Made by a program: the position numbers and the translations under genes
NCBI RefSeq assembly: GCF_029227915.1
Contig: NC_079877.1
Location: 8,556,001-8,620,000, forward strand
From: Hydractinia symbiolongicarpus
Lineage: Eukaryota; Cnidaria; Hydrozoa; Anthoathecata; Hydractiniidae
Direction: 5' to 3'
DNA: 64,000 bases
Shown: positions 1 through 64,000 of the stretch, piece after piece
Layout: the number at the start of each line of letters is the position of its first letter
Numbering within the stretch: position 1 is the stretch's first letter
The notes under the pieces: model-generated
Database searches by the model: none
What the model was told of the DNA's origin: nothing
Seen by the model: the letters and a program-made list of their open reading frames with translations, nothing else

Positions 1-6
1 TTTCCA

Positions 7-79
7 GGGGGATTAGCTCACATGGTAGAGCGCTCGCTTTGCATGCGAGAGGTACCGGGATCGATGCCCGGATCCTCCA
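7..79 (+). tRNA. tRNA-Ala(TGC)
   Basis: Unit 1, reference copy, 73 nt, no intron and no encoded CCA. It decodes alanine GCA codons. The acceptor arm GGGGGAT pairs with ATCCTCC (one G-U), D-stem GCTC/GAGC, anticodon stem CTCGC/GCGAG around loop TTTGCAT (anticodon TGC at 40-42), T-stem CCGGG/CCCGG, discriminator A79. The T-loop ATCGATG has A54, typical of animal tRNA-Ala. The G3:U70 wobble, the main alanyl-tRNA synthetase identity element, is present. Compared with Ala(AGC) in the same unit, it differs only in the lower acceptor stem, at position 15 (C instead of G) and at position 34. A T5 terminator follows at 88-92. Eight of the 50 copies in the window carry substitutions. Confidence 0.97.
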
Positions 80-87
80 AGACGATG

Positions 88-92
88 TTTTT
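88..92 (+). terminator. Pol III T5 terminator of tRNA-Ala(TGC)
   Basis: A run of five T begins 9 nt after the discriminator base of Ala(TGC). It is repeated in every unit. Confidence 0.75.
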
Positions 93-174
93 AATTTATT
101 TATTTTTATACTAATTTCAGTAGTTGCCAATGGTCATAAGAGGATTTATGATGCTCCTAAGATTACCTGGTATT

Positions 175-192
175 AATAATAATAATAATAAT
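175..192 (+). repeat. (AAT)6 microsatellite, variable between units
   Basis: Six AAT triplets here. The count is 7 in units 5, 8-11, 23, 28, 34-36 and 42; 8 in units 12 and 37; 9 in unit 13; 5 in units 44 and 47; 4 in unit 38; and 6 elsewhere. Unit 12 has one GAT interruption (near 14529) and unit 46 one AGT interruption (near 58816). The tract explains almost all differences in unit length. Confidence 0.95.
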
Positions 193-320
193 ACTAAACC
201 GCGCTGCATATGTCTAGAGCATTTCTTGCTGTTTAATTTCGCATTGACAGTATACACAGTTTCAGCTTTTAACATGATCGACCGTGTGGCATTCGGGCAT
301 TGACGCCATCGCGAACATAT

Positions 321-330
321 TATTTAAATA
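321..330 (+). promoter_or_regulatory. TATA-like element upstream of tRNA-Asp
   Basis: TATTTAAATA ends 8 nt before the Asp gene. Upstream AT-rich or TATA-like elements help Pol III initiation at tRNA genes in several eukaryotes, but this one is closer than the usual -30 position. The role is inferred only from sequence and placement. Confidence 0.3.
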
Positions 331-338
331 TGAACTCG

Positions 339-410
339 TCCTCGGTAGTATAGTGGTAAGTATCCCCGCCTGTCACGCGGGAGACCGGGGTTCGATTCCC
401 CGCCGGGGAG
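339..410 (+). tRNA. tRNA-Asp(GTC)
   Basis: Unit 1, reference copy, 72 nt. It decodes aspartate GAC/GAU. Acceptor TCCTCGG pairs with CCGGGGA, anticodon stem CCCGC/GCGGG around loop CTGTCAC (anticodon GTC at 372-374), T-stem CGGGG/CCCCG with T-loop TTCGATT, discriminator G410. The whole body closely matches animal tRNA-Asp. The internal A box (positions 8-19) and B box (52-62) are canonical. An AT-rich TATA-like stretch lies just upstream and T5 follows at 415-419. Fourteen of 49 copies carry substitutions, several at core tertiary positions, so Asp is one of the more eroded genes in the unit. Confidence 0.97.
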
Positions 411-414
411 GTTC

Positions 415-419
415 TTTTT
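415..419 (+). terminator. Pol III T5 terminator of tRNA-Asp
   Basis: T5 begins 5 nt after the end of Asp. In unit 42 (near 53841) a C-to-T change lengthens the run to eight T or more. Confidence 0.8.
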
Positions 420-483
420 ATCTTGTCAATGTTTCGTTTCACGTCAGTAGCGTTCGCGGGACTGTCCGGGAATACAGATATAC

Positions 484-556
484 GCCCGGTTAGCTCAGTC
501 GGTAGAGCATCAGACTTTTAATCTGAGGGTCGCGGGTTCGAGTCCCTCATCGGGCG
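484..556 (+). tRNA. tRNA-Lys(TTT)
   Basis: Unit 1, reference copy, 73 nt. It decodes lysine AAA/AAG. Acceptor GCCCGGT pairs with ATCGGGC (one G-U), D-stem GCTC/GAGC, anticodon stem TCAGA/TCTGA around loop CTTTTAA (anticodon TTT at 517-519), discriminator G556. The T-stem GCGGG/CCCTC has a C50-U64 mismatch that is part of the array consensus, so the T arm is weaker than in typical animal tRNA-Lys. No run of four or more T lies between this gene and Ala(AGC) 107 bp downstream, so it may be co-transcribed with that gene. Lys is the most altered gene: 16 of 49 copies have substitutions, including G53U in units 3, 12, 14 and 47. Confidence 0.95.
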
Positions 557-663
557 TAACAATTATTTGGTACGATGGTGAACTAACTTTCACCACAATG
601 TCTTGTCGAAAGAGGATGAATAACGTAACATTTGCGGAGTGGCAAAGGCGAAGCAAACTTGAT

Positions 664-736
664 GGGGAACTAGCTCAGATGGTAGAGCGCTCGCTTAGCA
701 TGCGAGAGGTACCGGGATCGATGCCCGGGTTCTCCA
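664..736 (+). tRNA. tRNA-Ala(AGC)
   Basis: Unit 1, reference copy, 73 nt. With A34 edited to inosine it would read GCU, GCC and GCA. Acceptor GGGGAAC pairs with GTTCTCC and keeps the G3:U70 alanine identity pair. D-stem GCTC/GAGC, anticodon stem CTCGC/GCGAG around TTAGCAT (anticodon AGC at 697-699), T-arm CCGGG-ATCGATG-CCCGG, discriminator A736. T4 follows at 742-745. It is the best preserved gene of the unit, with changes in only 7 of 49 copies. Confidence 0.97.
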
Positions 737-741
737 ATGCC

Positions 742-745
742 TTTT
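742..745 (+). terminator. Pol III T4 terminator of tRNA-Ala(AGC)
   Basis: T4 begins 6 nt after Ala(AGC). It is also the first run of four or more T downstream of tRNA-Lys, because 557-663 contains none. Confidence 0.75.
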
Positions 746-804
746 CCATAGGCGTAAAATAAATGAAATTTGCGCAGAGCAATTTGCAGCAGCGTTCGTG
801 TCAT

Positions 805-920
805 GTCGGGATGGCCGAGCGGTCTAAGGCGCCAGACTCAAGACAAAATGTTCTTCCACTCATCGCGTGGAGAATTCTGGTCCTCGAATGAGGGCGTGGG
901 TTCGAATCCCACTTCCGATA
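805..920 (+). tRNA. tRNA-Leu(CAA) with 32-nt intron
   Basis: Unit 1. It decodes leucine UUG. Exon 1 is 805-842, intron 843-874, exon 2 875-920; mature length is 84 nt. In every copy the intron is nucleotides 39-70 of the gene. Anticodon CAA is at 839-841, stem CCAGA/TCTGG, and the intron sits after position 37 as in animal tRNA-Leu(CAA). The long variable arm has stem CCTC/GAGG, as expected for a class II tRNA. The intron can form a 6-bp hairpin (854-859 with 867-872, 7-nt loop). Copy-specific change: C72U at 919 (G1:C72 becomes G:U); other units have C. T4 terminators lie at 923-926 and 942-945. Confidence 0.95.
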
Positions 921-922
921 AC

Positions 923-926
923 TTTT
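923..926 (+). terminator. Pol III T4 terminator of tRNA-Leu
   Basis: T4 begins 3 nt after the Leu discriminator. A second T4, at 942-945, lies inside the palindrome shared with tRNA-Tyr. Confidence 0.75.
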
Positions 927-940
927 CCCTGCCACACAAA

Positions 941-956
941 ATTTTAGGCCTAAAAT
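941..956. terminator. Palindromic two-way Pol III terminator between convergent Leu and Tyr
   Basis: ATTTTAGGCCTAAAAT is a perfect 16-bp palindrome. It offers T4 to plus-strand transcripts leaving Leu and T4 (955-952) to minus-strand transcripts leaving Tyr. The minus-strand T4 begins 7 nt after the Tyr 3' end. It is conserved in essentially every unit; unit 35 has one G-to-A change (near 45255). Confidence 0.65.
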
Positions 957-961
957 GCAAG

Positions 962-1055
962 TCCACCGAGCCGGATTTGAACCAGCGACCTAAGGATGCC
1001 TGAGTGGTATAAGTTCGTCTACAGTCCTCCGCTCTACCAACTGAGCTATCGGTGG
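962..1055 (-). tRNA. tRNA-Tyr(GTA) with 21-nt intron
   Basis: Unit 1, reference copy. It decodes tyrosine UAC/UAU. Exon 1 is complement 1019-1055, intron complement 998-1018, exon 2 complement 962-997; mature length is 73 nt. In every copy the intron is plus-strand offsets 36-56 from the feature start. Acceptor CCACCGA pairs with TCGGTGG, including the C1:G72 pair expected for eukaryotic tyrosyl-tRNA synthetase. Discriminator A. Anticodon GTA is complement 1020-1022, stem GAGGA/TCCTT. An intron after position 37 is the rule in animal tRNA-Tyr. It converges on Leu; its T4 terminator is complement 952-955. Confidence 0.96.
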
Positions 1056-1125
1056 ATGTAGCATCGTACAGTGCTTGTGCAGGACTATGCAGGTCATGTC
1101 ACGTTTGTAGTATGACGTGGTTTTT

Positions 1126-1129
1126 AAAA
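1126..1129 (-). terminator. Pol III T4 terminator of initiator tRNA-Met
   Basis: Reading the minus strand, T4 begins 20 nt after the initiator Met 3' end. It abuts a plus-strand T5 at 1121-1125. Confidence 0.6.
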
Positions 1130-1148
1130 TGATGCGATAGCTCGCACG

Positions 1149-1220
1149 TAGCAGAGGGTGGTTTCGATCCACCGACCTCTGGGTTATGGGCCCAGCACGC
1201 TTCCTCTGCGCCACTCTGCT
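1149..1220 (-). tRNA. Initiator tRNA-Met(CAT)
   Basis: Unit 1, reference copy, 72 nt. It delivers the first methionine of proteins and binds eIF2. Initiator hallmarks are visible: A1:U72 at the top of the acceptor (AGCAGAG/CTCTGCT), A54 and A60 in the T-loop ATCGAAA, and three consecutive G:C pairs (29-31 with 39-41) closing the anticodon stem CTGGG/CCCAG. Anticodon CAT is complement 1186-1188. The sequence is very close to animal initiator tRNA. Downstream T4 is complement 1126-1129. Eleven of 49 copies carry substitutions. Confidence 0.97.
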
Positions 1221-1308
1221 GAAGGTAGGTAAGCTGAAATGTGTCTGATGTAAGGTGTAGTTTAGTATTGCGAACAGCACTCGAACTATGACCTTTTTAC
1301 CATTTCCA

Positions 1309-1381
1309 GGGGGATTAGCTCACATGGTAGAGCGCTCGCTTTGCATGCGAGAGGTACCGGGATCGATGCCCGGATCCTCCA
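1309..1381 (+). tRNA. tRNA-Ala(TGC)
   Basis: Unit 2, consensus. Confidence 0.96.
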
Positions 1382-1640
1382 AGACGATGTTTTTAATTTA
1401 TTTATTTTTATACTAATTTCAGTAGTTGCCAATGGTCATAAGAGGATTTATGATGCTCCTAAGATTACCTGGTATTAATAATAATAATAATAATACTTAA
1501 CCGCGCTGCATATGTCTAGAGCATTTCTTGCTGTTTAATTTCGCATTGACAGTATACACAGTTTCAGCTTTTAACATGATCGACCGTGTGGCATTCGGGC
1601 ATTGACGCCATCGCGAACATATTATTTAAATATGAACTCG

Positions 1641-1712
1641 TCCTCGGTAGTATAGTGGTAAGTATCCCCGCCTGTCACGCGGGAGACCGGGGTTCGATTC
1701 CCCGCCGGGGAG
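1641..1712 (+). tRNA. tRNA-Asp(GTC)
   Basis: Unit 2, consensus. Confidence 0.96.
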
Positions 1713-1785
1713 GTTCTTTTTATCTTGTCAATGTTTCGTTTCACGTCAGTAGCGTTCGCGGGACTGTCCGGGAATACAGATTTAC

Positions 1786-1858
1786 ACCCGGTTAGCTCAG
1801 TCGGTAGAGCATCAGACTTTTAATCTGAGGGTCGCGGGTTCGAGTCCCTCATCGGGCG
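1786..1858 (+). tRNA. tRNA-Lys(TTT), variant
   Basis: Unit 2. G1A (1786) breaks the top acceptor pair with C72; the same change is in unit 46. Confidence 0.85.
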
Positions 1859-1965
1859 TAACAATTATTTGGTACGATGGTGAACTAACTTTCACCACAA
1901 TGTCTTGTCGAAAGAGGATGAATAACGTAACATTTGCGGAGTGGCAAAGGCGAAGCAAACTTGAT

Positions 1966-2038
1966 GGGGATCTAGCTCAGATGGTAGAGCGCTCGCTTAG
2001 CATGCGAGAGATACCGGGATCGATGCCCGGGTTCTCCA
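1966..2038 (+). tRNA. tRNA-Ala(AGC), variant
   Basis: Unit 2. A6U (1971) disrupts an acceptor pair; G46A (2011) in the variable loop. Confidence 0.85.
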
Positions 2039-2106
2039 ATGCCTTTTCCATAGGCGTAAAATAAATGAAATTTGCGCAGAGCAATTTGCAGCAGCGTTCG
2101 TGTCAT

Positions 2107-2222
2107 GTCGGGATGGCCGAGCGGTCTAAGGCGCCAGACTCAAGACAAAATGTTCTTCCACTCATCGCGTGGAGAATTCTGGTCCTCGAATGAGGGCGTG
2201 GGTTCGAATCCCACTTCCGACA
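2107..2222 (+). tRNA. tRNA-Leu(CAA) with intron
   Basis: Unit 2, consensus. Confidence 0.95.
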
Positions 2223-2263
2223 ACTTTTCCCTGCCACACAAAATTTTAGGCCTAAAATGCAAG

Positions 2264-2357
2264 TCCACCGAGCCGGATTTGAACCAGCGACCTAAGGATG
2301 CCTGAGTGGTATAAGTTCGTCTACAGTCCTCCGATCTACCAACTGAGCTATCGGTGG
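2264..2357 (-). tRNA. tRNA-Tyr(GTA) with intron, variant
   Basis: Unit 2. G24U (2334) breaks D-stem pair C11:G24. Confidence 0.85.
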
Positions 2358-2450
2358 ATGTAGCATCGTACAGTTCTTGTGCAGGACTATGCAGGTCATG
2401 TCACGTTTGTAGTATGACGTGGTTTTTAAAATGATGCGATAGCTCGCACG

Positions 2451-2522
2451 TAGCAGAGGGTGGTTTCGATCCACCGACCTCTGGGTTATGGGCCAAGCAC
2501 GCTTCCTCTGCGCCACTCTGCT
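2451..2522 (-). tRNA. Initiator tRNA-Met(CAT), variant
   Basis: Unit 2. G29U (2495) breaks the first of the three diagnostic G:C pairs of the initiator anticodon stem. Confidence 0.85.
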
Positions 2523-2610
2523 GAATGTAGGTAAGCTGAAATGTGTCTGATGTAAGGTGTAGTTTAGTATTGCGAACAGCACTCGAACTATGACCTTTTT
2601 ACCATTTCCA

Positions 2611-2683
2611 GGGGGATTAGCTCACATGGTAGAGCGCTCGCTTTGCATGCGAGAGGTACCGGGATCGATGCCCGGATCCTCCA
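2611..2683 (+). tRNA. tRNA-Ala(TGC)
   Basis: Unit 3, consensus. Confidence 0.96.
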
Positions 2684-2942
2684 AGACGATGTTTTTAATT
2701 TATTTATTTTTATACTAATTTCAGTAGTTGCCAATGGTCATAAGAGGATTTATGATGCTCCTAAGATTACCTGGTATTAATAATAATAATAATAATACTA
2801 AACCGCGCTGCATATGTCTAGAGCATTTCTTGCTGTTTAATTTCGCATTGACAGTATACACAGTTTCAGCTTTTAACATGATCGACCGTGTGGCATTCGG
2901 GCATTGACGCCATCGCGAACATATTATTTAAATATGAACTCG

Positions 2943-3014
2943 TCCTCGGTAGTATAGTGGTAAGTATCCCCGCCTGTCACGCGGGAGACCGGGGTTCGAT
3001 TCCCCGCCGGGAAG
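2943..3014 (+). tRNA. tRNA-Asp(GTC), variant
   Basis: Unit 3. G71A (3012) leaves a C2-A71 acceptor mismatch. Confidence 0.85.
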
Positions 3015-3087
3015 GTTCTTTTTATCTTGTCAATGTTTCGTTTCACGTCAGTAGCGTTCGCGGGACTGTCCGGGAATACAGTTTTAC

Positions 3088-3160
3088 GCCCGGTTAGCTC
3101 AGTCGGTAGACCATCAGACTTTTAATCTGAGGGTCGCGGTTTCGAGTCCCTCATCGGGCG
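3088..3160 (+). tRNA. tRNA-Lys(TTT), probably impaired
   Basis: Unit 3. G24C (3111) breaks the D-stem and G53U (3140) breaks the T-stem and alters the B box. Confidence 0.75.
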
Positions 3161-3267
3161 TAACAATTATTTGGTACGATGGTGAACTAACTTTCACCAC
3201 AATGTCTTGTCGAAAGAGGATGAATAACGTAACATTTGCGGAGTGGCAAAGGCGAAGCAAACTTGAT

Positions 3268-3340
3268 GGGGAACTAGCTCAGATGGTAGAGCGCTCGCTT
3301 AGCATGCGAGAGGTACCGGGATCGATGCCCGGGTTCTCCA
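3268..3340 (+). tRNA. tRNA-Ala(AGC)
   Basis: Unit 3, consensus. Confidence 0.96.
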
Positions 3341-3408
3341 ATGCCTTTTCCATAGGCGTAAAATAAATGAAATTTGCGCAGAGCAATTTGCAGCAGCGTT
3401 CGTGTCAT

Positions 3409-3524
3409 GTCGGGATGGCCGAGCGGTCTAAGGCGCCAGACTCTAGACAAAATGTTCTTCCACTCATCGCGTGGAGAATTCTGGTCCTCGAATGAGGGCG
3501 TGGGTTCGAATCCCACTTCCGACA
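3409..3524 (+). tRNA. tRNA-Leu body with CTA anticodon (possible amber suppressor)
   Basis: Unit 3. The middle anticodon base is changed (A to T at 3444), so the anticodon at 3443-3445 is CTA, complementary to the UAG stop codon. The rest of the exons and the intron match consensus, so if transcribed, spliced and charged it would insert leucine at UAG. Eukaryotic leucyl-tRNA synthetases generally rely little on the anticodon (known of the family), which makes charging plausible. The intron is normally positioned to pair near the anticodon, so splicing efficiency is uncertain. Confidence 0.88.
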
Positions 3525-3565
3525 ACTTTTCCCTGCCACACAAAATTTTAGGCCTAAAATGCAAG

Positions 3566-3659
3566 TCCACCGAGCCGGATTTGAACCAGCGACCTAAGGA
3601 TGCCTGAGTGGTATAAGTTCGTCTACAGTCCTCCGCTCTACCAACTGAGCTATCGGTGG
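3566..3659 (-). tRNA. tRNA-Tyr(GTA) with intron
   Basis: Unit 3, consensus. Confidence 0.95.
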
Positions 3660-3752
3660 ATGTAGCATCGTACAGTTCTTGTGCAGGACTATGCAGGTCA
3701 TGTCACGTTTGTAGTATGACGTGGTTTTTAAAATGATGCGATAGCTCGCACG

Positions 3753-3824
3753 TAGCAGAGGGTGGTTTCGATCCACCGACCTCTGGGTTATGGGCCCAGC
3801 ACGCTTCCTCTGCGCCACTCTGCT
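3753..3824 (-). tRNA. Initiator tRNA-Met(CAT)
   Basis: Unit 3, consensus. Confidence 0.96.
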
Positions 3825-3912
3825 GAAGGTAGGTAAGCTGAAATGTGTCTGATGTAAGGTGTAGTTTAGTATTGCGAACAGCACTCGAACTATGACCTTT
3901 TTACCATTTCCA

Positions 3913-54164: not shown

Positions 54165-54232
54165 ATGCCTTTTCCATAGGCGTAAAATAAATGAAATTTG
54201 CGCAGAGCAATTTGCAGCAGCGTTCGTGTCAT

Positions 54233-54348
54233 GTCGGGATGGCCGAGCGGTCTAAGGCGCCAGACTCAAGACAAAATGTTCTTCCACTCATCGCGTGGAG
54301 AATTCTGGTCCTCGAATGAGGGCGTGGGTTCGAATCCCACTTCCGACA
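54233..54348 (+). tRNA. tRNA-Leu(CAA) with intron
   Basis: Unit 42, consensus. Confidence 0.95.
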
Positions 54349-54389
54349 ACTTTTCCCTGCCACACAAAATTTTAGGCCTAAAATGCAAG

Positions 54390-54483
54390 TCCACCGAGCC
54401 GGATTTGAACCAGCGACCTAAGGATGCCTGAGTGGTATAAGTTCGTCTACAGTCCTCCGCTCTACCAACTGAGCTATCGGTGG
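54390..54483 (-). tRNA. tRNA-Tyr(GTA) with intron
   Basis: Unit 42, consensus. Confidence 0.95.
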
Positions 54484-54576
54484 ATGTAGCATCGTACAGT
54501 TCTTGTGCAGGACTATGCAGGTCATGTCACGTTTGTAGTATGACGTGGTTTTTAAAATGATGCGATAGCTCGCACG

Positions 54577-54648
54577 TAGCAGAGGGTGGTTTCGATCCAC
54601 CGACCTCTGGGTTATGGGCCCAGCACGCTTCCTCTGCGCCACTCTGCT
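54577..54648 (-). tRNA. Initiator tRNA-Met(CAT)
   Basis: Unit 42, consensus. Confidence 0.96.
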
Positions 54649-54736
54649 GAAGGTAGGTAAGGTGAAATGTGTCTGATGTAAGGTGTAGTTTAGTATTGCG
54701 AACAGCACTCGAACTATGACCTTTTTACCATTTCCA

Positions 54737-54809
54737 GGGGGATTAGCTCACATGGTAGAGCGCTCGCTTTGCATGCGAGAGGTACCGGGATCGATGCCCG
54801 GATCCTCCA
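54737..54809 (+). tRNA. tRNA-Ala(TGC)
   Basis: Unit 43, consensus. Confidence 0.96.
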
Positions 54810-55068
54810 AGACGATGTTTTTAATTTATTTATTTTTATACTAATTTCAGTAGTTGCCAATGGTCATAAGAGGATTTATGATGCTCCTAAGATTACCTGG
54901 TATTAATAATAATAATAATAATACTAAACCGCGCTGCATATGTCTAGAGCATTTCTTGCTGTTTAATTTAGCATTGACAGTATACACAGTTTCAGCTTTT
55001 AACATGATCGACCGTGTTGCATTCGGGCATTGACGCCATCGCGAACATATTATTTAAATATGAACTCG

Positions 55069-55140
55069 TCCTCGGTAGTATAGTGGTAAGTATCCCCGCC
55101 TGTCACGCGGGAGACCGGGGTTCGATTCCCCGCCGGGGAG
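55069..55140 (+). tRNA. tRNA-Asp(GTC)
   Basis: Unit 43, consensus. Confidence 0.96.
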
Positions 55141-55213
55141 GTTCTTTTTATCTTGTCAATGTTTCGTTTCACGTCAGTAGCGTTCGCGGGACTGTCCGGG
55201 AATACAGATATAC

Positions 55214-55286
55214 GCCCGGTTAGCTCAGTCGGTAGAGCATCAGACTTTTAATCTGAGGGTCGCGGGTTCGAGTCCCTCATCGGGCG
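55214..55286 (+). tRNA. tRNA-Lys(TTT)
   Basis: Unit 43, consensus; upstream T-to-A variant shared only with unit 1. Confidence 0.95.
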
Positions 55287-55393
55287 TAACAATTATTTGG
55301 TACGATGGTGAACTAACTTTCACCACAATGTCTTGTCGAAAGAGGATGAATAACGTAACATTTGCGGAGTGGCAAGGGCGAAGCAAACTTGAT

Positions 55394-55466
55394 GGGGAAC
55401 TAGCTCAGATGGTAGAGCGCTCGCTTAGCATGCGAGAGGTACCGGGATCGATGCCCGGGTTCTCCA
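55394..55466 (+). tRNA. tRNA-Ala(AGC)
   Basis: Unit 43, consensus. Confidence 0.96.
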
Positions 55467-55534
55467 ATGCCTTTTCCATAGGCGTAAAATAAATGAAATT
55501 TGCGCAGAGCAATTTGCAGCAGCGTTCGTGTCAT

Positions 55535-55650
55535 GTCGGGATGGCCGAGCGGTCTAAGGCGCCAGACTCAAGACAAAATGTTCTTCCACTCATCGCGTGG
55601 AGAATTCTGGTCCTCGAAGGAGGGCGTGGGTTTGAATCCCACTTCCGACA
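55535..55650 (+). tRNA. tRNA-Leu(CAA) with intron, probably impaired
   Basis: Unit 43. C56U (55633) removes the invariant B-box C56; variable-arm loop U-to-G (55619). Confidence 0.78.
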
Positions 55651-55691
55651 ACTTTTCCCTGCCACACAAAATTTTAGGCCTAAAATGCAAG

Positions 55692-55785
55692 TCCACCGAG
55701 CCGGATTTGAACCAGCGACCTAAGGATGCCTGAGTGGTATAAGTTCGTCTACAGTCCTCCGCTCTACCAACTGAGCTATCGGTGG
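55692..55785 (-). tRNA. tRNA-Tyr(GTA) with intron
   Basis: Unit 43, consensus. Confidence 0.95.
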
Positions 55786-55878
55786 ATGTAGCATCGTACA
55801 GTTCTTGTGCAGGACTATGCAGGTCATGTCACGTTTGTAGTATGACGTGGTTTTTAAAATGATGCGATAGCTCGCACG

Positions 55879-55950
55879 TAGCAGAGGGTGGTTTCGATCC
55901 ACCGACCTCTGGGTTATGGGCCCAGCACGCTTCCTCTGCGCCACTCTGCT
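55879..55950 (-). tRNA. Initiator tRNA-Met(CAT)
   Basis: Unit 43, consensus. Confidence 0.96.
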
Positions 55951-56038
55951 GAAGGTAGGTAAGCTGAAATGTGTCTGATGTAAGGTGTAGTTTAGTATCG
56001 CGAACAGCACTCGAACTATGACCTTTTTACCATTTCCA

Positions 56039-56111
56039 GGGGGATTAGCTCACATGGTAGAGCGCTCGCTTTGCATGCGAGAGGTACCGGGATCGATGCC
56101 CGGATCCTCCA
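56039..56111 (+). tRNA. tRNA-Ala(TGC)
   Basis: Unit 44, consensus. Confidence 0.96.
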
Positions 56112-56367
56112 AGACGATGTTTTTAATTTATTTATTTTTATACTAATTTCAGTAGTTGCCAATGGTCATAAGAGGATTTATGATGCTCCTAAGATTACCT
56201 GGTATTAATAATAATAATAATACTAAACCGCGCTGCATATGTCTAGAGCATTTCTTGCTGTTTAATTTCGCATTGACAGTATACACAGTTTCAGCTTTTA
56301 ACATGATCGACCGTGTGGCATTCGGGCATTGACGCCATCGCGAACATATTATTTAAATATGAACTCG

Positions 56368-56439
56368 TCCTCGGTAGTATAGTGGTAAGTATTCCCGCCT
56401 GTCACGCGGGAGACCGGGGTTCGATTCCCCGCCGGGGAG
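56368..56439 (+). tRNA. tRNA-Asp(GTC), variant
   Basis: Unit 44. C26U (56393) at the D/anticodon junction; mild. Confidence 0.93.
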
Positions 56440-56512
56440 GTTCTTTTTATCTTGTCAATGTTTCGTTTCACGTCAGTAGCGTTCGCGGGACTGTCCGGGA
56501 ATACAGATTTAC

Positions 56513-56585
56513 GCCCGGTTAGCTCAGTCGGTAGAGCATCAGACTTTTAATCTGAGGGTCGCGGGTTCGAGTCCCTTATCGGGCG
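56513..56585 (+). tRNA. tRNA-Lys(TTT), variant
   Basis: Unit 44. C65U (56577) makes G49:U65 beside the standing C50-U64 mismatch. Confidence 0.88.
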
Positions 56586-56692
56586 TAACAATTATTTGGT
56601 ACGATGGTGAACTAACTTTCAGCACAATGTCTTGTCGAAAGAGGATGAATAACGTAACATTTGCGGAGTGGCAAAGGCGAAGCAAACTTGAT

Positions 56693-56765
56693 GGGGAACT
56701 AGCTCAGATGGTAGAGCGCTCGCTTAGCATGCGAGAGGTACCGGGATCGATGCCCGGGTTCTCCA
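56693..56765 (+). tRNA. tRNA-Ala(AGC)
   Basis: Unit 44, consensus. Confidence 0.96.
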
Positions 56766-56833
56766 ATGCCTTTTCCATAGGCGTAAAATAAATGAAATTT
56801 GCGCAGAGCAATTTGCAGCAGCGTTCGTGTCAT

Positions 56834-56949
56834 GTCGGGATGGCCGAGCGGTCTAAGGCGCCAGACTCAAGACAAAATGTTCTTCCACTCATCGCGTGGA
56901 GAATTCTGGTCCTCGAATGAGGGCGTGGGTTCGAATCCCACTTCCGACA
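56834..56949 (+). tRNA. tRNA-Leu(CAA) with intron
   Basis: Unit 44, consensus. Confidence 0.95.
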
Positions 56950-56990
56950 ACTTTTCCCTGCCACACAAAATTTTAGGCCTAAAATGCAAG

Positions 56991-57084
56991 TCCACCGAGC
57001 CGGATTTGAACCAGCGACCTAAGGATGCCTGAGTGGTATAAGTTCGTCTACAGTCCTCCGCTCTACCAACTGAGCTATCGGTGG
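56991..57084 (-). tRNA. tRNA-Tyr(GTA) with intron
   Basis: Unit 44, consensus. Confidence 0.95.
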
Positions 57085-57177
57085 ATGTAGCATCGTACAG
57101 TGCTTGTGCAGGACTATGCAGGTCATGTCACGTTTGTAGTATGACGTGGTTTTTAAAATGATGCGATAGCTCGCACG

Positions 57178-57249
57178 TAGCAGAGGGTGGTTTCGATCCA
57201 CCGACCTCTGGGTTATGGGCCCAGCACGCTTCCTCTGCGCCACTCTGCT
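57178..57249 (-). tRNA. Initiator tRNA-Met(CAT)
   Basis: Unit 44, consensus. Confidence 0.96.
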
Positions 57250-57337
57250 GAAGGTAGGTAAGCTGAAATGTGTCTGATGTAAGGTGTAGTTTAGTATTGC
57301 GAACAGCACTCGAACTATGACCTTTTTACCATTTCCA

Positions 57338-57410
57338 GGGGGATTAGCTCACATGGTAGAGCGCTCGCTTTGCATGCGAGAGGTACCGGGATCGATGCCC
57401 GGATCCTCCA
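57338..57410 (+). tRNA. tRNA-Ala(TGC)
   Basis: Unit 45, consensus. Confidence 0.96.
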
Positions 57411-57669
57411 AGACGATGTTTTTAATTTATTTATTTTTATACTAATTTCAGTAGTTGCCAATGGTCATAAGAGGATTTATGATGCTCCTAAGATTACCTG
57501 GTATTAATAATAATAATAATAATACTAAACCGCGCTGCATATGTCTAGAGCATTTCTTGCTGTTTAATTTCGCATTGACAGTATACACAGTTTCAGCTTT
57601 TAACATGATCGACCGTGTGGCATTCGGGCATTGACGCCATCGCGAACATATTATTTAAATATGAACTCG

Positions 57670-57741
57670 TCCTCGGTAGTATAGTGGTAAGTATCCCCGC
57701 CTGTCACGCGGGAGACCGGGGTTCGATTCCCCGCCGGGGAG
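57670..57741 (+). tRNA. tRNA-Asp(GTC)
   Basis: Unit 45, consensus; one extra T follows at about 57744. Confidence 0.96.
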
Positions 57742-57815
57742 GTTTCTTTTTATCTTGTCAATGTTTCGTTTCACGTCAGTAGCGTTCGCGGGACTGTCCG
57801 GGAATACATATTTAC

Positions 57816-57888
57816 GCCCGGTTAGCTCAGTCGGTAGAGCATCAGACTTTTAATCTGAGGGTCGCGGGTTCGAGTCCCTCATCGGGCG
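57816..57888 (+). tRNA. tRNA-Lys(TTT)
   Basis: Unit 45, consensus. Confidence 0.95.
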
Positions 57889-57995
57889 TAACAATTATTT
57901 GGTACGATGGTGAACTAACTTTCACCACAATGTCTTGTCGAAAGAGGATGAATAACGTAACATTTGCGGAGTGGCAAAGGCGAAGCAAACTTGAT

Positions 57996-58068
57996 GGGGA
58001 ACTAGCTCAGATGGTAGAGCGCTCGCTTAGCATGCGAGAGGTACCGGGATCGATGCCCGGGTTCTCCA
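57996..58068 (+). tRNA. tRNA-Ala(AGC)
   Basis: Unit 45, consensus. Confidence 0.96.
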
Positions 58069-58136
58069 ATGCCTTTTCCATAGGCGTAAAATAAATGAAA
58101 TTTGCGCAGAGCAATTTGCAGCAGCGTTCGTGTCAT

Positions 58137-58252
58137 GTCGGGATGGCCGAGCGGTCTAAGGCGCCAGACTCAAGACAAAATGTTCTTCCACTCATCGCGT
58201 GGAGAATTCTGGTCCTCGAATGAGGGCGTGGGTTCGAATCCCACTTCCGACA
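58137..58252 (+). tRNA. tRNA-Leu(CAA) with intron
   Basis: Unit 45, consensus. Confidence 0.95.
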
Positions 58253-58293
58253 ACTTTTCCCTGCCACACAAAATTTTAGGCCTAAAATGCAAG

Positions 58294-58387
58294 TCCACCG
58301 AGCCGGATTTGAACCAGCGACCTAAGGATGCCTGAGTGGTATAAGTTCGTCTACAGTCCTCCGCTCTACCAACTGAGCTATCGGTGG
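58294..58387 (-). tRNA. tRNA-Tyr(GTA) with intron
   Basis: Unit 45, consensus. Confidence 0.95.
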
Positions 58388-58480
58388 ATGTAGCATCGTA
58401 CAGTTCTTGTGCAGGACTATGCAGGTCATGTCACGTTTGTAGTATGACGTGGTTTTTAAAATGATGCAATAGCTCGCACG

Positions 58481-58552
58481 TAGCAGAGGGTGGTTTCGAT
58501 CCGCCGACCTCTGGGTTATGGGCCCAGCACGCTTCCTCTGCGCCACTCTGCT
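58481..58552 (-). tRNA. Initiator tRNA-Met(CAT), variant
   Basis: Unit 45. U51C (58503) gives a C51-A63 T-stem mismatch. Confidence 0.88.
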
Positions 58553-58640
58553 GAAGGTAGGTAAGCTGAAATGTGTCTGATGTAAGGTGTAGTTTAGTAT
58601 TGCGAACAGCACTCGAACTATGACCTTTTTACCATTTCCA

Positions 58641-58713
58641 GGGGGATTAGCTCACATGGTAGAGCGCTCGCTTTGCATGCGAGAGGTACCGGGATCGATG
58701 CCCGGATCCTCCA
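58641..58713 (+). tRNA. tRNA-Ala(TGC)
   Basis: Unit 46, consensus. Confidence 0.96.
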
Positions 58714-58972
58714 AGACGATGTTTTTAATTTATTTATTTTTATACTAATTTCAGTAGTTGCCAATGGTCATAAGAGGATTTATGATGCTCCTAAGATTAC
58801 CTGGTATTAATAATAGTAATAATAATACTAAACCGCGCTGCATATGTCTAGAGCATTTCTTGCTGTTTAATTTCGCATTGACAGTATACACAGTTTCAGC
58901 TTTTAACATGATCGACCGTGTGGCATTCGGGCATTGACGCCATCGCGAACATATTATTTAAATATGAACTCG

Positions 58973-59044
58973 TCCTCGGTAGTATAGTGGTAAGTATCCC
59001 CGCCTGTCACGCGGGAGACCGGGGTTCGATTCCCCGCCGGGGAG
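58973..59044 (+). tRNA. tRNA-Asp(GTC)
   Basis: Unit 46, consensus. Confidence 0.96.
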
Positions 59045-59117
59045 GTTCTTTTTATCTTGTCAATGTTTCGTTTCACGTCAGTAGCGTTCGCGGGACTGTC
59101 CGGGAATACAGATTTAC

Positions 59118-59190
59118 ACCCGGTTAGCTCAGTCGGTAGAGCATCAGACTTTTAATCTGAGGGTCGCGGGTTCGAGTCCCTCATCGGTCG
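59118..59190 (+). tRNA. tRNA-Lys(TTT), probably impaired
   Basis: Unit 46. G1A (59118) and G71U (59188) break both top acceptor pairs. Confidence 0.72.
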
Positions 59191-59297
59191 TAACAATTAT
59201 TTGGTACGATGGTGAACTAACTTTCACCACAATGTCTTGTCGAAAGAGGATGAATAACGTAACATTTGCGGAGTGGCAAAGGCGAAGCAAACTTGAT

Positions 59298-59370
59298 GGG
59301 GAACTAGCTCAGATGGTAGAGCGCTCGCTTAGCATGCGAGAGGTACCGGGATCGATGCCCGGGTTCTCCA
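59298..59370 (+). tRNA. tRNA-Ala(AGC)
   Basis: Unit 46, consensus. Confidence 0.96.
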
Positions 59371-59438
59371 ATGCCTTTTCCATAGGCGTAAAATAAATGA
59401 AATTTGCGCAGAGCAATTTGCAGCAGCGTTCGTGTCAT

Positions 59439-59554
59439 GTCGGGATGGCCGAGCGGTCTAAGGCGCCAGACTCAAGACAAAATGTTCTTCCACTCATCGC
59501 GTGGAGAATTCTGGTCCTCGAATGAGGGCGTGGGTTCGAATCCCACGTCCGACA
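59439..59554 (+). tRNA. tRNA-Leu(CAA) with intron, variant
   Basis: Unit 46. U66G (59547) breaks acceptor pair A7:U66. Confidence 0.88.
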
Positions 59555-59595
59555 ACTTTTCCCTGCCACACAAAATTTTAGGCCTAAAATGCAAG

Positions 59596-59689
59596 TCCAC
59601 CGAGCCGGATTTGAACCAGCGACCTAAGGATGCCTGAGTGGTATAAGTTCGTCTACAGTCCTCCGCTCTACCAACTGAGCTATCGGTGG
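59596..59689 (-). tRNA. tRNA-Tyr(GTA) with intron
   Basis: Unit 46, consensus. Confidence 0.95.
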
Positions 59690-59782
59690 ATGTAGCATCG
59701 TACAGTTCTTGTGCAGGACTATGCAGGTCATGTCACGTTTGTAGTATGACGTGGTTTTTAAAATGATGCGATAGCTCGCACG

Positions 59783-59854
59783 TAGCAGAGGGTGGTTTCG
59801 ATCCACCGACCTCTGGGTTATGGGCCCAGCACGCTTCCTCTGCGCCACTCTGCT
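59783..59854 (-). tRNA. Initiator tRNA-Met(CAT)
   Basis: Unit 46, consensus. Confidence 0.96.
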
Positions 59855-59942
59855 GAAGGTAGGTAAGCTGAAATGTGTCTGATGTAAGGTGTAGTTTAGT
59901 ATTGCGAACAGCACTCGAACTATGACCTTTTTACCATTTCCA

Positions 59943-60015
59943 GGGGGATTAGCTCACATGGTAGAGCGCTCGCTTTGCATGCGAGAGGTACCGGGATCGA
60001 TGCCCGGATCCTCCA
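59943..60015 (+). tRNA. tRNA-Ala(TGC)
   Basis: Unit 47, consensus. Confidence 0.96.
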
Positions 60016-60271
60016 AGACGATGTTTTTAATTTATTTATTTTTATACTAATTTCAGTAGTTGCCAATGGTCATAAGAGGATTTATGATGCTCCTAAGATT
60101 ACCTGGTATTAATAATAATAATAATACTAAACCGCGCTGCATATGTCTAGAGCATTTCTTGCTGTTTAATTTCGCATTGACAGTATACACAGTTTCAGCT
60201 TTTAACATGATCGACCGTGTGGCATTCGGGCATTGACGCCATCGCGAACATATTATTTAAATATGAACTCG

Positions 60272-60343
60272 TCCTCGGTAGTATAGTGGTAAGTATCCCC
60301 GCCTGTCACGCGGGAGACCGGGGTTCGATTCCCCGCCGGGGAG
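60272..60343 (+). tRNA. tRNA-Asp(GTC)
   Basis: Unit 47, consensus. Confidence 0.96.
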
Positions 60344-60416
60344 GTTCTTTTTATCTTGTCAATGTTTCGTTTCACGTCAGTAGCGTTCGCGGGACTGTCC
60401 GGGAATACAGATTTAC

Positions 60417-60489
60417 GCCCGGTTAGCTCAGTCGGTAGAGCATCAGACTTTTAATCTGAGGGTCGCGGTTTCGAGTCCCTCATCGGGCG
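60417..60489 (+). tRNA. tRNA-Lys(TTT), variant
   Basis: Unit 47. G53U (60469), as in units 3, 12 and 14. Confidence 0.8.
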
Positions 60490-60596
60490 TAACAATTATT
60501 TGGTACGATGGTGAACTAACTTTCACCACAATGTCTTGTCGAAAGAGGATGAATAACGTAACATTTGCGGAGTGGCAAAGGCGAAGCAAACTTGAT

Positions 60597-60669
60597 GGGG
60601 AACTAGCTCAGATGGTAGAGCGCTCGCTTAGCATGCGAGAGGTACCGGGATCGATGCCCGGGTTCTCCA
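60597..60669 (+). tRNA. tRNA-Ala(AGC)
   Basis: Unit 47, consensus. Confidence 0.96.
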
Positions 60670-60737
60670 ATGCCTTTTCCATAGGCGTAAAATAAATGAA
60701 ATTTGCGCAGAGCAATTTGCAGCAGCGTTCGTGTCAT

Positions 60738-60853
60738 GTCGGGATGGCCGAGCGGTCTAAGGCGCCAGACTCAAGACAAAATGTTCTTCCACTCATCGCG
60801 TGGAGAATTCTGGTCCTCGAATGAGGGCGTGGGTTCGAATCCCACTTCCGACA
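60738..60853 (+). tRNA. tRNA-Leu(CAA) with intron
   Basis: Unit 47, consensus. Confidence 0.95.
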
Positions 60854-60894
60854 ACTTTTCCCTGCCACACAAAATTTTAGGCCTAAAATGCAAG

Positions 60895-60988
60895 TCCACC
60901 GAGCCGGATTTGAACCAGCGACCTAAGGATGCCTGAGTGGTATAAGTTCGTCTACAGTCCTCCGCTCTACCAACTGAGCTATCGGTGG
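60895..60988 (-). tRNA. tRNA-Tyr(GTA) with intron
   Basis: Unit 47, consensus. Confidence 0.95.
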
Positions 60989-61081
60989 ATGTAGCATCGT
61001 ACAGTTCTTGTGCAGGACTATGCAGGTCATGTCACGTTTGTAGTATGACGTGGTTTTTAAAATGATGCGATAGCTCGCACG

Positions 61082-61153
61082 TAGCAGAGGGTGGTTTCGA
61101 TCCACCGACCTCTGGGTTATGGGCCCAGCACGCTTCCTCTGCGCCACTCTGCT
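61082..61153 (-). tRNA. Initiator tRNA-Met(CAT)
   Basis: Unit 47, consensus. Confidence 0.96.
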
Positions 61154-61241
61154 GAAGGTAGGTAAGCTGAAATGTGTCTGATGTAAGGTGTAGTTTAGTA
61201 TTGCGAACAGCACTCGAACTATGACCTTTTTACCATTTCCA

Positions 61242-62155: not shown

Positions 62156-62196
62156 ACTTTTCCCTGCCACACAAAATTTTAGGCCTAAAATGCAAG

Positions 62197-62290
62197 TCCA
62201 CCAAGCCGGATTTGAACCAGCGACCTAAGGATGCCTGAGTGGTATAAGTTCGTCTACAGTCCTCCGCTCTACCAACTGAGCTATCGGTGG
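62197..62290 (-). tRNA. tRNA-Tyr(GTA) with intron, variant
   Basis: Unit 48. C67U (62203) makes a G6:U67 wobble. Confidence 0.92.
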
Positions 62291-62383
62291 ATGTAGCATC
62301 GTACAGTTCTTGTGCAGGACTATGCAGGTCATGTCACGTTTGTAGTATGACGTGGTTTTTAAAATGATGCGATAGCTCGCACG

Positions 62384-62455
62384 TAGCAGAGGGTGGTTTC
62401 GATCCACCGACCTCTGGGTTATGGGCCCAGCACGCTTCCTCTGCGCCACTCTTCT
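62384..62455 (-). tRNA. Initiator tRNA-Met(CAT), variant
   Basis: Unit 48. C3A (62453) breaks acceptor pair C3:G70. Confidence 0.86.
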
Positions 62456-62543
62456 GAAGGTAGGTAAGCTGAAATGTGTCTGATGTAAGGTGTAGTTTAG
62501 TATTGCGAACAGCACTCGAACTATGACCTTTTTACCATTTCCA

Positions 62544-62616
62544 GGGTGATTAGCTCACATGGTAGAGCGCTCGCTTTGCATGCGAGAGGTACCGGGATCG
62601 ATGCCCGGATCCTCCA
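62544..62616 (+). tRNA. tRNA-Ala(TGC), variant
   Basis: Unit 49. G4U (62547) breaks acceptor pair G4:C69, next to the G3:U70 identity pair. Confidence 0.86.
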
Positions 62617-62875
62617 AGACGATGTTTTTAATTTATTTATTTTTATACTAATTTCAGTAGTTGCCAATGGTCATAAGAGGATTTATGATGCTCCTAAGAT
62701 TACCTGGTATTAATAATAATAATAATAATACTAAACCGCGCTGCATATGTCTAGAGCATTTCTTGCTGTTTAATTTCGCATTGACAGTATACACAGTTTC
62801 AGCTTTTAACATGATCGACCGTGTGGCATTCGGGCATTGACGCCATCGCGAACATATTATTTAAATATGAACTCG

Positions 62876-62947
62876 TCCTCGGTAGTATAGTGGTAAGTAT
62901 CCCCGCCTGTCACGCGGGAGACCGGGGTTCGATTCCCCGCCGGGGAG
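62876..62947 (+). tRNA. tRNA-Asp(GTC)
   Basis: Unit 49, consensus. Confidence 0.96.
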
Positions 62948-63020
62948 GTTCTTTTTATCTTGTCAATGTTTCGTTTCACGTCAGTAGCGTTCGCGGGACT
63001 GTCCGGGAATACAGATTTAC

Positions 63021-63093
63021 GCCCGGTTAGCTCAGTCGGTAGAGCATCAGACTTTTAATCTGAGGGTCGCGGGTTCGAGTCCCTCATCGGGCG
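63021..63093 (+). tRNA. tRNA-Lys(TTT)
   Basis: Unit 49, consensus. Confidence 0.95.
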
Positions 63094-63200
63094 TAACAAT
63101 TATTTGGTACGATGGTGAACTAACTTTCACCACAATGTCTTGTCGAAAGAGGATGAATAACGTAACATTTGCGGAGTGGCAAAGGCGAAGCAAACTTGAT

Positions 63201-63273
63201 GGGGAACTAGCTCAGATGGTAGAGCGCTCGCTTAGCATGCGAGAGGTACCGGGATCGATGCCCGGGTTCTCCA
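63201..63273 (+). tRNA. tRNA-Ala(AGC)
   Basis: Unit 49, consensus. Confidence 0.96.
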
Positions 63274-63341
63274 ATGCCTTTTCCATAGGCGTAAAATAAA
63301 TGAAATTTGCGCAGAGCAATTTGCAGCAGCGTTCGTGTCAT

Positions 63342-63457
63342 GTCGGGATGGCCGAGCGGTCTAAGGCGCCAGACTCAAGACAAAATGTTCTTCCACTCAT
63401 CGCGTGGAGAATTCTGGTCCTCGAATGAGGGCGTGGGTTCGAATCCCACTTCCGACA
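63342..63457 (+). tRNA. tRNA-Leu(CAA) with intron
   Basis: Unit 49, consensus. Confidence 0.95.
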
Positions 63458-63498
63458 ACTTTTCCCTGCCACACAAAATTTTAGGCCTAAAATGCAAG

Positions 63499-63592
63499 TC
63501 CACCGAGCCGGATTTGAACCAGCGACCTAAGGATGCCTGAGTGGTATAAGTTCGTCTACAGTCCTCCGCTCTACCAACTGAGCTATCGGTGG
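63499..63592 (-). tRNA. tRNA-Tyr(GTA) with intron
   Basis: Unit 49, consensus. Confidence 0.95.
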
Positions 63593-63685
63593 ATGTAGCA
63601 TCGTACAGTTCTTGTGCAGGACTATGCAGGTCATGTCACGTTTGTAGTATGACGTGGTTTTTAAAATGATGCGATAGCTCGCACG

Positions 63686-63757
63686 TAGCAGAGGGTGGTT
63701 TCGATCCACCGACCTCTGGGTTATGGGCCCAGCACGCTTCCTCTGCGCCACTCTGCT
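63686..63757 (-). tRNA. Initiator tRNA-Met(CAT)
   Basis: Unit 49, consensus. Confidence 0.96.
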
Positions 63758-63845
63758 GAAGGTAGGTAAGCTGAATTGTGTCTGATGTAAGGTGTAGTTT
63801 AGTATTGCGAACAGCACTCGAACTATGACCTTTTTACCATTTCCA

Positions 63846-63918
63846 GGGGGATTAGCTCACATGGTAGAGCGCTCGCTTTGCATGCGAGAGGTACCGGGAT
63901 CGATGCCCGAATCCTTCA
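63846..63918 (+). tRNA. tRNA-Ala(TGC), variant
   Basis: Unit 50, the only gene of this unit inside the window. G65A (63910) breaks the T-stem base pair and C71U (63916) makes G2:U71 in the acceptor. Confidence 0.86.
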
Positions 63919-64000
63919 AGACGATGTTTTTAATTTATTTATTTTTATACTAATTTCAGTAGTTGCCAATGGTCATAAGAGGATTTATGATGCTCCTAAG

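What the first reader, a model, noticed from the sequence alone, without database searches (positions are those of the whole stretch)
1..64000. A >64-kb tandem array carrying 344 tRNA genes in a 1.3-kb seven-gene unit
Forty-nine complete units repeat without interruption, each with Ala(TGC), Asp, Lys, Ala(AGC), Leu, Tyr and initiator Met in fixed order and strand. Tandem tRNA repeats are known (Xenopus 3.18-kb unit, Entamoeba arrays, human chr1), but a compact animal-type unit with this gene set at this copy number is unusual. Supply of initiator tRNA, or a structural or chromatin role as proposed for Entamoeba arrays, are both possible.
Basis: partly seen in the sequence, partly recalled or inferred. 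Interest (0 to 1): 0.88.

Follow-up and report, generated by a model that had tools for sequence, protein, structure and literature searches.

The report
Tandem array of seven tRNA genes
A stretch of what looks like an animal chromosome consists of nothing but one small block of seven tRNA genes repeated about fifty times; this is a real and striking member of a known kind of gene array, and its scattered mutations may hint that the genes are switched on in the germ line.

Summary
The window is 49 complete and one partial head-to-tail copy of a 1302-bp unit (lengths 1296-1311; mean pairwise identity 99.43%), each with Ala(TGC), Asp, Lys, Ala(AGC), Leu(CAA, intron), Tyr(GTA, intron) and initiator Met in fixed order and strand: 344 gene copies. 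Rfam gives 343 matches above threshold. Tandem tRNA arrays are known (Xenopus, Hydractinia, human, Entamoeba, Phytophthora), so this is a new member of a known kind; seven genes in 1.3 kb is the most compact mixed unit I came across.

Variation inside the array adds three points. It is star-like (142 of 158 variants in one unit only; Tajima's D -2.83), suggesting recent amplification. Single copies show no purifying selection: genes vary at least as much as spacers, and 39 of 343 copies have a broken stem pair. Variants are densest in genes and the 40 bp upstream and sparse downstream, which may reflect Pol III-linked germ-line mutation (exploratory, post hoc, with mixed controls). Best reading: a bulk tRNA source, probably used in oocyte or early embryo. 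Expression, organism, flanks and genome copy number were not testable; the genome search did not complete.

The parts
1..64000 (.). tandem array: 49 complete units and 162 bp of a 50th; consensus unit 1302 bp
1..1301 (.). first unit (representative); gene strands + + + + + - -
7..79 (+). tRNA-Ala(TGC), unit 1
174..191 (+). TAA microsatellite of unit 1 (six repeats), the main source of unit length variation
339..410 (+). tRNA-Asp(GTC), unit 1
484..556 (+). tRNA-Lys(TTT), unit 1; one C-T mismatch in the T stem of the consensus; first T4 run at +186
664..736 (+). tRNA-Ala(AGC), unit 1; 92% identical to Ala(TGC) of the same unit
805..920 (+). tRNA-Leu(CAA) with an intron of about 32 nt (ends placed by hand), unit 1
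   Evidence: not reported by ARAGORN
962..1055 (-). tRNA-Tyr(GTA) with an intron of about 21 nt (ends placed by hand), unit 1; ARAGORN calls it Leu
1149..1220 (-). initiator tRNA-Met(CAT), unit 1
63839..64000 (+). partial 50th unit with its Ala(TGC) gene (63846-63918)

Best explanation
This is a nuclear tandem array of RNA polymerase III genes in an animal-type genome. One 1.3-kb unit with seven complete tRNA genes was amplified head to tail to at least 49 copies in a comparatively recent burst, with small local re-duplications since (supported by the variant pattern; the cause, unequal exchange or replication slippage, is inferred). Each gene should have its own internal promoter (inferred from the tRNA bodies). 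Six of the seven consensus genes have a T4 or longer run starting within 20 bp of the 3' end; Lys may be read through into Ala(AGC). The array most likely works as a high-dosage source of these tRNAs, and by analogy with Xenopus and zebrafish most likely in oocyte or early embryo. Single copies are dispensable, so selection, if any, acts on the family or the array as a whole. Shown: anatomy, star-like variation, no visible constraint on single copies. Inferred: transcription, stage of use, mode of amplification.
For: In unit 1 all seven genes match the whole Rfam tRNA model at 46-68 bits; laid out by hand, all seven consensus genes pair as cloverleafs apart from one T-stem mismatch in Lys and one unpaired D-arm position in Leu. 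Terminators. Star-like variation: 142 of 158 site-alleles occur in one unit, Tajima's D -2.83. In simulated steady-state turnover (S 58-98, pi 10.7-25, against 158 and 7.5 here) the singleton fraction never passed 0.67 in 192 samples, against 0.90 here. Shared variants favour neighbours: 25 of 42 carrier pairs within 3 units against 5.0 expected; units 30-32 share three variants. No purifying selection seen: 40 of 81 mature-gene variants break a pair, 35.2 expected. Genes 87 variants in 574 bp, spacers 71 in 728 bp. Variants are sparse downstream of genes. Precedents: maternally deposited zebrafish tRNAs come from highly repetitive regions (PMC11417395, passages); oocyte-specific tandem tRNA genes of Xenopus are activated at genome activation (PMC11500080, passages).
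Against: No expression data and no organism. Damage to single copies is also what an inert satellite would show. The gene-over-spacer excess weakens with stricter controls: base-matched P 0.016, trinucleotide-matched P 0.040, rotation 62 of 1302, and within G+C or A+T sites alone it is not significant (P 0.09, 0.13). Transcribed trailers up to the first T4 run are not raised (16 variants in 177 bp, 0.090) and introns only slightly (6 in 53 bp). The upstream-downstream contrast was found after looking. Seven of 42 carrier pairs of shared variants lie 30 or more units apart, which local re-duplication does not explain.
Confidence: 0.5

Rival explanations
1. A neutral or selfish macrosatellite: the unit was amplified by recombination, carries functional tRNA sequences as passengers, and matters little to translation because dispersed genes elsewhere supply the tRNAs.
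For: No purifying selection seen on single copies; variants in genes at least as frequent as in spacers; star-like burst. In Phytophthora infestans tRNA gene number and codon use are only modestly correlated (R 0.41) and the most expanded families serve infrequent codons (PMC9584435, section 9).
Against: The seven consensus genes are intact and far from mutational equilibrium (GC 0.59 against an expected 0.29), so the founder unit was under selection until recently. The upstream-biased variation hints at transcription.
Confidence: 0.3
2. A chromatin or chromosome-structure element (barrier, insulator, telomere-like or pericentromeric array) for which Pol III factor binding, not tRNA supply, is what matters.
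For: Human 1q23.3 tRNA repeats bind CTCF and are proposed as boundaries (PMC4041453, passages); Entamoeba arrays were proposed as telomere replacements (PMC2652664, passages).
Against: No flanks were available, so position is unknown. No search for factor sites was run. Nothing specific speaks for it.
Confidence: 0.08
3. Supply for one specialised tissue product, like the silk-gland tRNA genes of Bombyx or the Arabidopsis Ser-Tyr-Tyr cluster.
For: A repeated tRNA cluster silent in most tissues and active in root-tip cells exists, and silk-gland tRNA-Ala genes form tandem repeats (PMC12308677, passages).
Against: Six amino acids (Ala twice) with initiator Met at near-equal dosage do not match a strongly biased protein.
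Confidence: 0.07
4. Assembly artefact: one unit iterated by the assembler, or copy number inflated.
For: Read depth could not be checked; uncorrected substitution errors could add to the singletons.
Against: 47 of 49 units carry at least one substitution against the consensus, in a fixed order. The longest exact self-match is 3.1 kb, short enough for ordinary long reads to resolve. Outside the TAA tract there are two indel events against 158 substitution site-alleles, which is not the usual long-read error profile (recalled).
Confidence: 0.04

Closest known systems
Xenopus 3.18-kb tandem tRNA unit (unit size from the finding, gene content recalled; no paper on it read; oocyte-specific tandem tRNA genes seen in PMC11500080 passages)
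   Same: heterogeneous multi-gene unit, animal, tandem; the recalled gene set also has Tyr, Ala, Leu, Lys and initiator Met
   Different: unit here is about 2.4 times shorter, with two Ala genes and Asp, and without the recalled Phe and Asn; developmental regulation not tested here
Hydractinia and Nematostella non-coding RNA tandem arrays (PMC11067881, passages)
   Same: animal; in Hydractinia tens or hundreds of nearly identical RNA gene copies, tRNAs included, with near-identical spacers
   Different: gene content of their units was not seen by me; organism here unknown
Zebrafish repetitive tRNA genes, chromosome 4 above all (PMC11417395, passages)
   Same: highly repetitive animal tRNA genes, linked there to maternal tRNAs; Asp-GTC, Leu-CAA and Ala-TGC switch isodecoders there
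   Different: unit structure not compared; no expression data here
Entamoeba tRNA arrays (PMC2652664, abstract start and passages)
   Same: mixed-isotype tandem units; short repeats in spacers
   Different: up to 5 genes per unit and 25 array units that hold almost all tRNA genes; here 7 genes with introns and one simple TAA tract
Human 1q23.3 tRNA VNTR (PMC4041453, passages)
   Same: five mixed tRNA genes per unit on both strands, 9-43 units
   Different: 7.3-kb GC-rich unit, 98% identity; here 1.3 kb, spacer GC 0.39, 99.4%
Phytophthora infestans tRNA arrays (PMC9584435, section 9)
   Same: long near-identical arrays, for example 271 copies of a 513-nt Cys unit
   Different: mono-, di- or trimeric units; oomycete

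Membership tests
Tandem multi-gene tRNA array of eukaryotes | many head-to-tail copies of one unit | tested here: met
   49 complete units and a partial one
Tandem multi-gene tRNA array of eukaryotes | several different tRNA genes per unit, fixed order | tested here: met
   seven genes
Tandem multi-gene tRNA array of eukaryotes | spacers as similar between units as the genes (homogenised unit) | tested here: met
   spacers 71 variants in 728 bp, genes 87 in 574 bp
Tandem multi-gene tRNA array of eukaryotes | copy number supported by reads or Southern blot | not testable with these tools
   no reads held
Oocyte or maternal tRNA array (Xenopus, zebrafish type) | expression in oocyte or early embryo, low later | not testable with these tools
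   no expression data; the mutation pattern is indirect
Entamoeba-type array | complex short tandem repeats between adjacent genes | tested here: not met
   only one simple TAA tract, in the Ala(TGC)-Asp spacer; no other short tandem repeat reported
Bacterial or phage tRNA array | no introns of this type, often encoded CCA, like bacterial tRNA (features recalled) | tested here: not met
   introns in Tyr and Leu; the Ala and Asp genes are not followed by CCA; in phages and plasmids no record holds 80% of the unit, and the rows listed (20 of 395, 20 of 192) match up to 12% of it, in tRNA gene stretches
tRNA-derived SINE | dispersed degenerate tRNA head with body and tail (recalled) | tested here: not met
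   in the window the unit is tandem with seven complete tRNA genes; dispersal elsewhere in the genome could not be checked

The most novel reading that the evidence does not exclude
Because the units form a star-like genealogy and single copies look unconstrained, the array is a natural mutation-accumulation record of Pol III genes in an animal germ line. Mutations concentrate over the initiation region and the gene body (0.136 per bp in the 40 bp upstream, 0.152 in genes) and are sparse after the gene (0.063), so the array carries a readable footprint of its own germ-line transcription. The Lys gene, which lacks a nearby terminator, is the only one of seven without an upstream excess.
Probability: 0.27. 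Interest if true: 0.62.

Novelty: new member of a known kind. Interest (0 to 1): 0.47.

Why it matters
Tandem tRNA arrays are hard to assemble and rarely described in animals, so a 64-kb stretch with variants in nearly every unit is useful. It shows how such arrays may grow and how single copies decay. If the variant footprint is confirmed in other arrays, sequence alone could tell which repeated Pol III genes are active in the germ line, and the mutational cost of tRNA transcription could be measured without selection hiding it in the gene body.

Tried and rejected
Tandem Repeats Finder did not see the array because its longest period is 500. Exact scans with Lys and initiator patterns found nothing in genome contigs, nor did Tyr and initiator patterns in viral contigs. 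A shorter initiator core found one IMG/VR contig, L001, where ARAGORN reports 19 tRNA genes in the 14.3 kb held and no repeated unit like this one. Plasmid and phage searches gave only tRNA-gene matches in the rows listed (20 of 192 and 20 of 395 records). A block duplication of about 25 units, suggested by the run of unit lengths, was dropped: lag-25 differences are ordinary (7.50 against a mean of 7.48); lags 40-44 are lower (6.67, 6.67, 5.60; few pairs) and stay unexplained. Autocorrelation of TAA length was not significant (P 0.16). The first turnover simulation had few variants (mean S 5, 10 and 40), where the singleton fraction reached 1.00 in one setting (means 0.28, 0.25, 0.17); it was replaced with more variants, still fewer than observed. 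My hand layout of the initiator was wrong and corrected; the anticodon position used for the initiator is off by one, so the anticodon tally is not used and the CAC change is taken. Strand asymmetry of the mutation spectrum looked weak, was not tested formally, and is not claimed.

Papers: nine searches were made; one returned nothing. The key paper on tRNA mutation rates (Thornlow 2018) is not held and is known only from the passage and reference entry seen in PMC8113476. Of the papers cited I saw search listings, starts of abstracts and passages only, except section 9 of PMC9584435, which I read whole. PMC7305587 was also looked at in passages and not used.

Full report
OBSERVATION. The window holds 50 starts of one unit: 49 complete units and 162 bp of a 50th. 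The consensus is 1302 bp and lengths run from 1296 to 1311, mostly through a TAA microsatellite whose longest uninterrupted run is 3-9 repeats. Each unit has Ala(TGC), Asp(GTC), Lys(TTT), Ala(AGC) and Leu(CAA) on the plus strand, then Tyr(GTA) and initiator Met on the minus strand. Genes fill 574 of 1302 bp. Rfam gives 343 matches at or above the gathering score; the 150 listed are all tRNA, 193 were not listed. ARAGORN gives 286: no Leu(CAA), 41 of 49 Tyr (labelled Leu), 48 of 49 Ala(AGC), the rest complete.

GENE QUALITY. In unit 1 all seven genes match the whole Rfam tRNA model at 46.2-67.8 bits. Laid out by hand, the seven consensus genes pair as cloverleafs, apart from a C-T mismatch in the T stem of Lys and an unpaired D-arm position in Leu. 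The Ala genes have a G3-U70 pair, Asp has G73 and Tyr has C1-G72 by reading of the sequence; that these are identity elements is recalled. The initiator resembles animal initiator tRNAs (recalled). Of 343 copies in complete units, 259 equal the consensus gene, 77 have a changed mature sequence and 39 have a broken stem pair. Seven of 49 units have all seven mature sequences unchanged, and 21 of 49 have no broken pair. One initiator copy has anticodon CAC and one Leu copy has CTA, which would read UAG (3443-3445).

TRANSCRIPTION SIGNALS. In the consensus the first run of four or more T starts at +9 (Ala TGC), +5 (Asp), +6 (Ala AGC), +3 (Leu), +7 (Tyr) and +20 (initiator). For Lys it starts at +186, beyond the Ala(AGC) gene. 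Lys and Ala(AGC) may therefore share a transcript; this is inference. Leu and Tyr converge over 41 bp; the initiator and the next Ala(TGC) diverge over 88 bp (coordinates). No promoter-box scan was run.

HISTORY OF THE ARRAY. Mean pairwise identity is 99.43%. There are 158 substitution site-alleles, 142 of them in a single unit, and Tajima's D is -2.83. In a simple simulation of steady duplication and deletion (60 or 150 units, blocks up to 1, 5 or 25) the singleton fraction averaged 0.15-0.29 and never exceeded 0.67 in 192 samples, against 0.90 here. The simulated samples had fewer variants (mean S 58-98) and higher diversity (pi 10.7-25) than the array (158 and 7.5), came in sets of four from one run, and had no gene conversion; an earlier run with very few variants did reach 1.00 in one setting. 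So the units look like products of one recent burst that then mutated mostly independently. Shared variants favour neighbours: 25 of 42 carrier pairs lie within three units against 5.0 expected, and the mean lag is 10.2 against 16.7 (P 0.0005). Units 30-32 share three variants. Against purely local copying, 7 of the 42 pairs lie 30 or more units apart, linking units 1-3 with units 37-47 at five sites; recurrent mutation or long-range exchange could do this, and I did not settle it.

SELECTION. Genes are not protected: 87 variants in 574 bp of gene against 71 in 728 bp of spacer. Pair-breaking variants number 40 of 81, against 35.2 (sd 3.8) expected if placed at random with the same base changes. 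Yet the genes stand far from mutational equilibrium (GC 0.59 against 0.29 expected), while spacers are close to it (0.39 against 0.34). The founder unit was therefore under selection for long (inference), and the present single copies are not visibly so.

A POSSIBLE FOOTPRINT. Variants per bp are 0.152 in genes (87 in 573), 0.136 in the 40 bp upstream (38 in 280), 0.063 in the 40 bp downstream (14 in 222, upstream bases excluded) and 0.084 elsewhere (19 in 227). Gene by gene, upstream exceeds downstream in six of seven and ties in Lys, the one without a near terminator; the Leu and Tyr downstream counts are nearly the same 41 bp. Controls for genes alone: base-matched P 0.016, trinucleotide-matched P 0.040, rotation of the gene map 62 of 1302, and not significant within A+T sites (P 0.13) or G+C sites (P 0.09) taken apart. 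Genes plus upstream: base-matched P 0.0006 and 2 of 1302 rotations. Upstream over downstream: base-matched P 0.012, 3 of 1302 rotations. Against the reading: the trailers between gene end and first T4 run, which should be transcribed, are not raised (16 in 177 bp, 0.090; 11 in 137 bp, 0.080, without upstream bases), though the 30 bp after that run are lower still (5 in 128 bp, 0.039); introns are at 0.113 (6 in 53 bp). The 40-bp limit and the grouping were chosen after seeing the data, so all this is exploratory. It fits mutation linked to Pol III initiation and transcription, reported for the immediate flanks of tRNA genes (cited in PMC8113476, passage), and would then imply germ-line activity.

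ARTEFACT CHECK. Apart from the TAA tract there are two indel events against 158 substitution site-alleles; the missing first base of unit 1 is the window edge. The longest exact self-match is 3.1 kb. Ordinary long reads could resolve such an array. Uncorrected substitution errors could add singletons, but would not be expected to prefer genes and upstream regions. Read depth was not available.

WHAT IS KNOWN. Large tRNA clusters arose independently many times in eukaryotes (PMC2888827, passages). Hydractinia has non-coding RNA arrays, tRNAs included, of tens or hundreds of near-identical copies, and Nematostella has tRNA arrays; the same paper calls tRNA arrays unusual outside Entamoeba (PMC11067881, passages). 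Human 1q23.3 has five genes in 7.3 kb, 9-43 units (PMC4041453, passages). Entamoeba has 25 units of up to 5 genes (PMC2652664, abstract start and passages). Phytophthora infestans has units of one to three genes, with for example 271 copies of one (PMC9584435, section 9). Zebrafish maternal tRNAs come from highly repetitive regions (PMC11417395, passages), and Xenopus oocyte-specific tandem tRNA genes are activated at genome activation (PMC11500080, passages). In the listings I saw no mention of a seven-gene unit of 1.3 kb; I saw titles, starts of abstracts and passages only, the library is open-access only, and the classic Xenopus papers were not seen.

VERDICT. A real tandem array, a new member of a known kind, notable for compactness and for the variant record it carries. 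The most likely role is bulk tRNA supply, probably maternal, at moderate confidence. The organism, flanks, whole-genome tRNA set and expression remain unknown, because the genome search did not answer and no expression data are held.

Noticed in passing
3443-3445 (Leu gene of unit 3): One Leu tRNA copy has anticodon CTA in place of CAA, a possible amber-reading tRNA; one of 49 copies.
   Followed up: partly
25916-25988: One initiator Met copy has anticodon CAC (called Val by ARAGORN), in unit 20.
   Followed up: partly
484-736: In the consensus, Lys has no T4 run before the Ala(AGC) gene, so the two may be co-transcribed.
   Followed up: partly
7-79 and 664-736: The two Ala genes of a unit are 92% identical and differ at the first anticodon base, suggesting a duplication with an anticodon shift before the amplification.
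   Followed up: no
units 1-3 (1-3905) and units 37-47 (about 46915-61234): Five variant sites are shared between units near the two ends of the window, and differences at lags 40-44 are lower than average; unexplained.
   Followed up: no
spacers of the consensus unit: CpG in the spacers is above expectation (observed/expected 1.26), unlike methylated vertebrate-type DNA (recalled); a hint about the organism or about an unmethylated array.
   Followed up: no
L001:8441-8514: A 26-kb IMG/VR contig has 19 tRNA genes in the 14.3 kb held, one a Met with a 27-nt exact match to the core of the initiator here.
   Followed up: no
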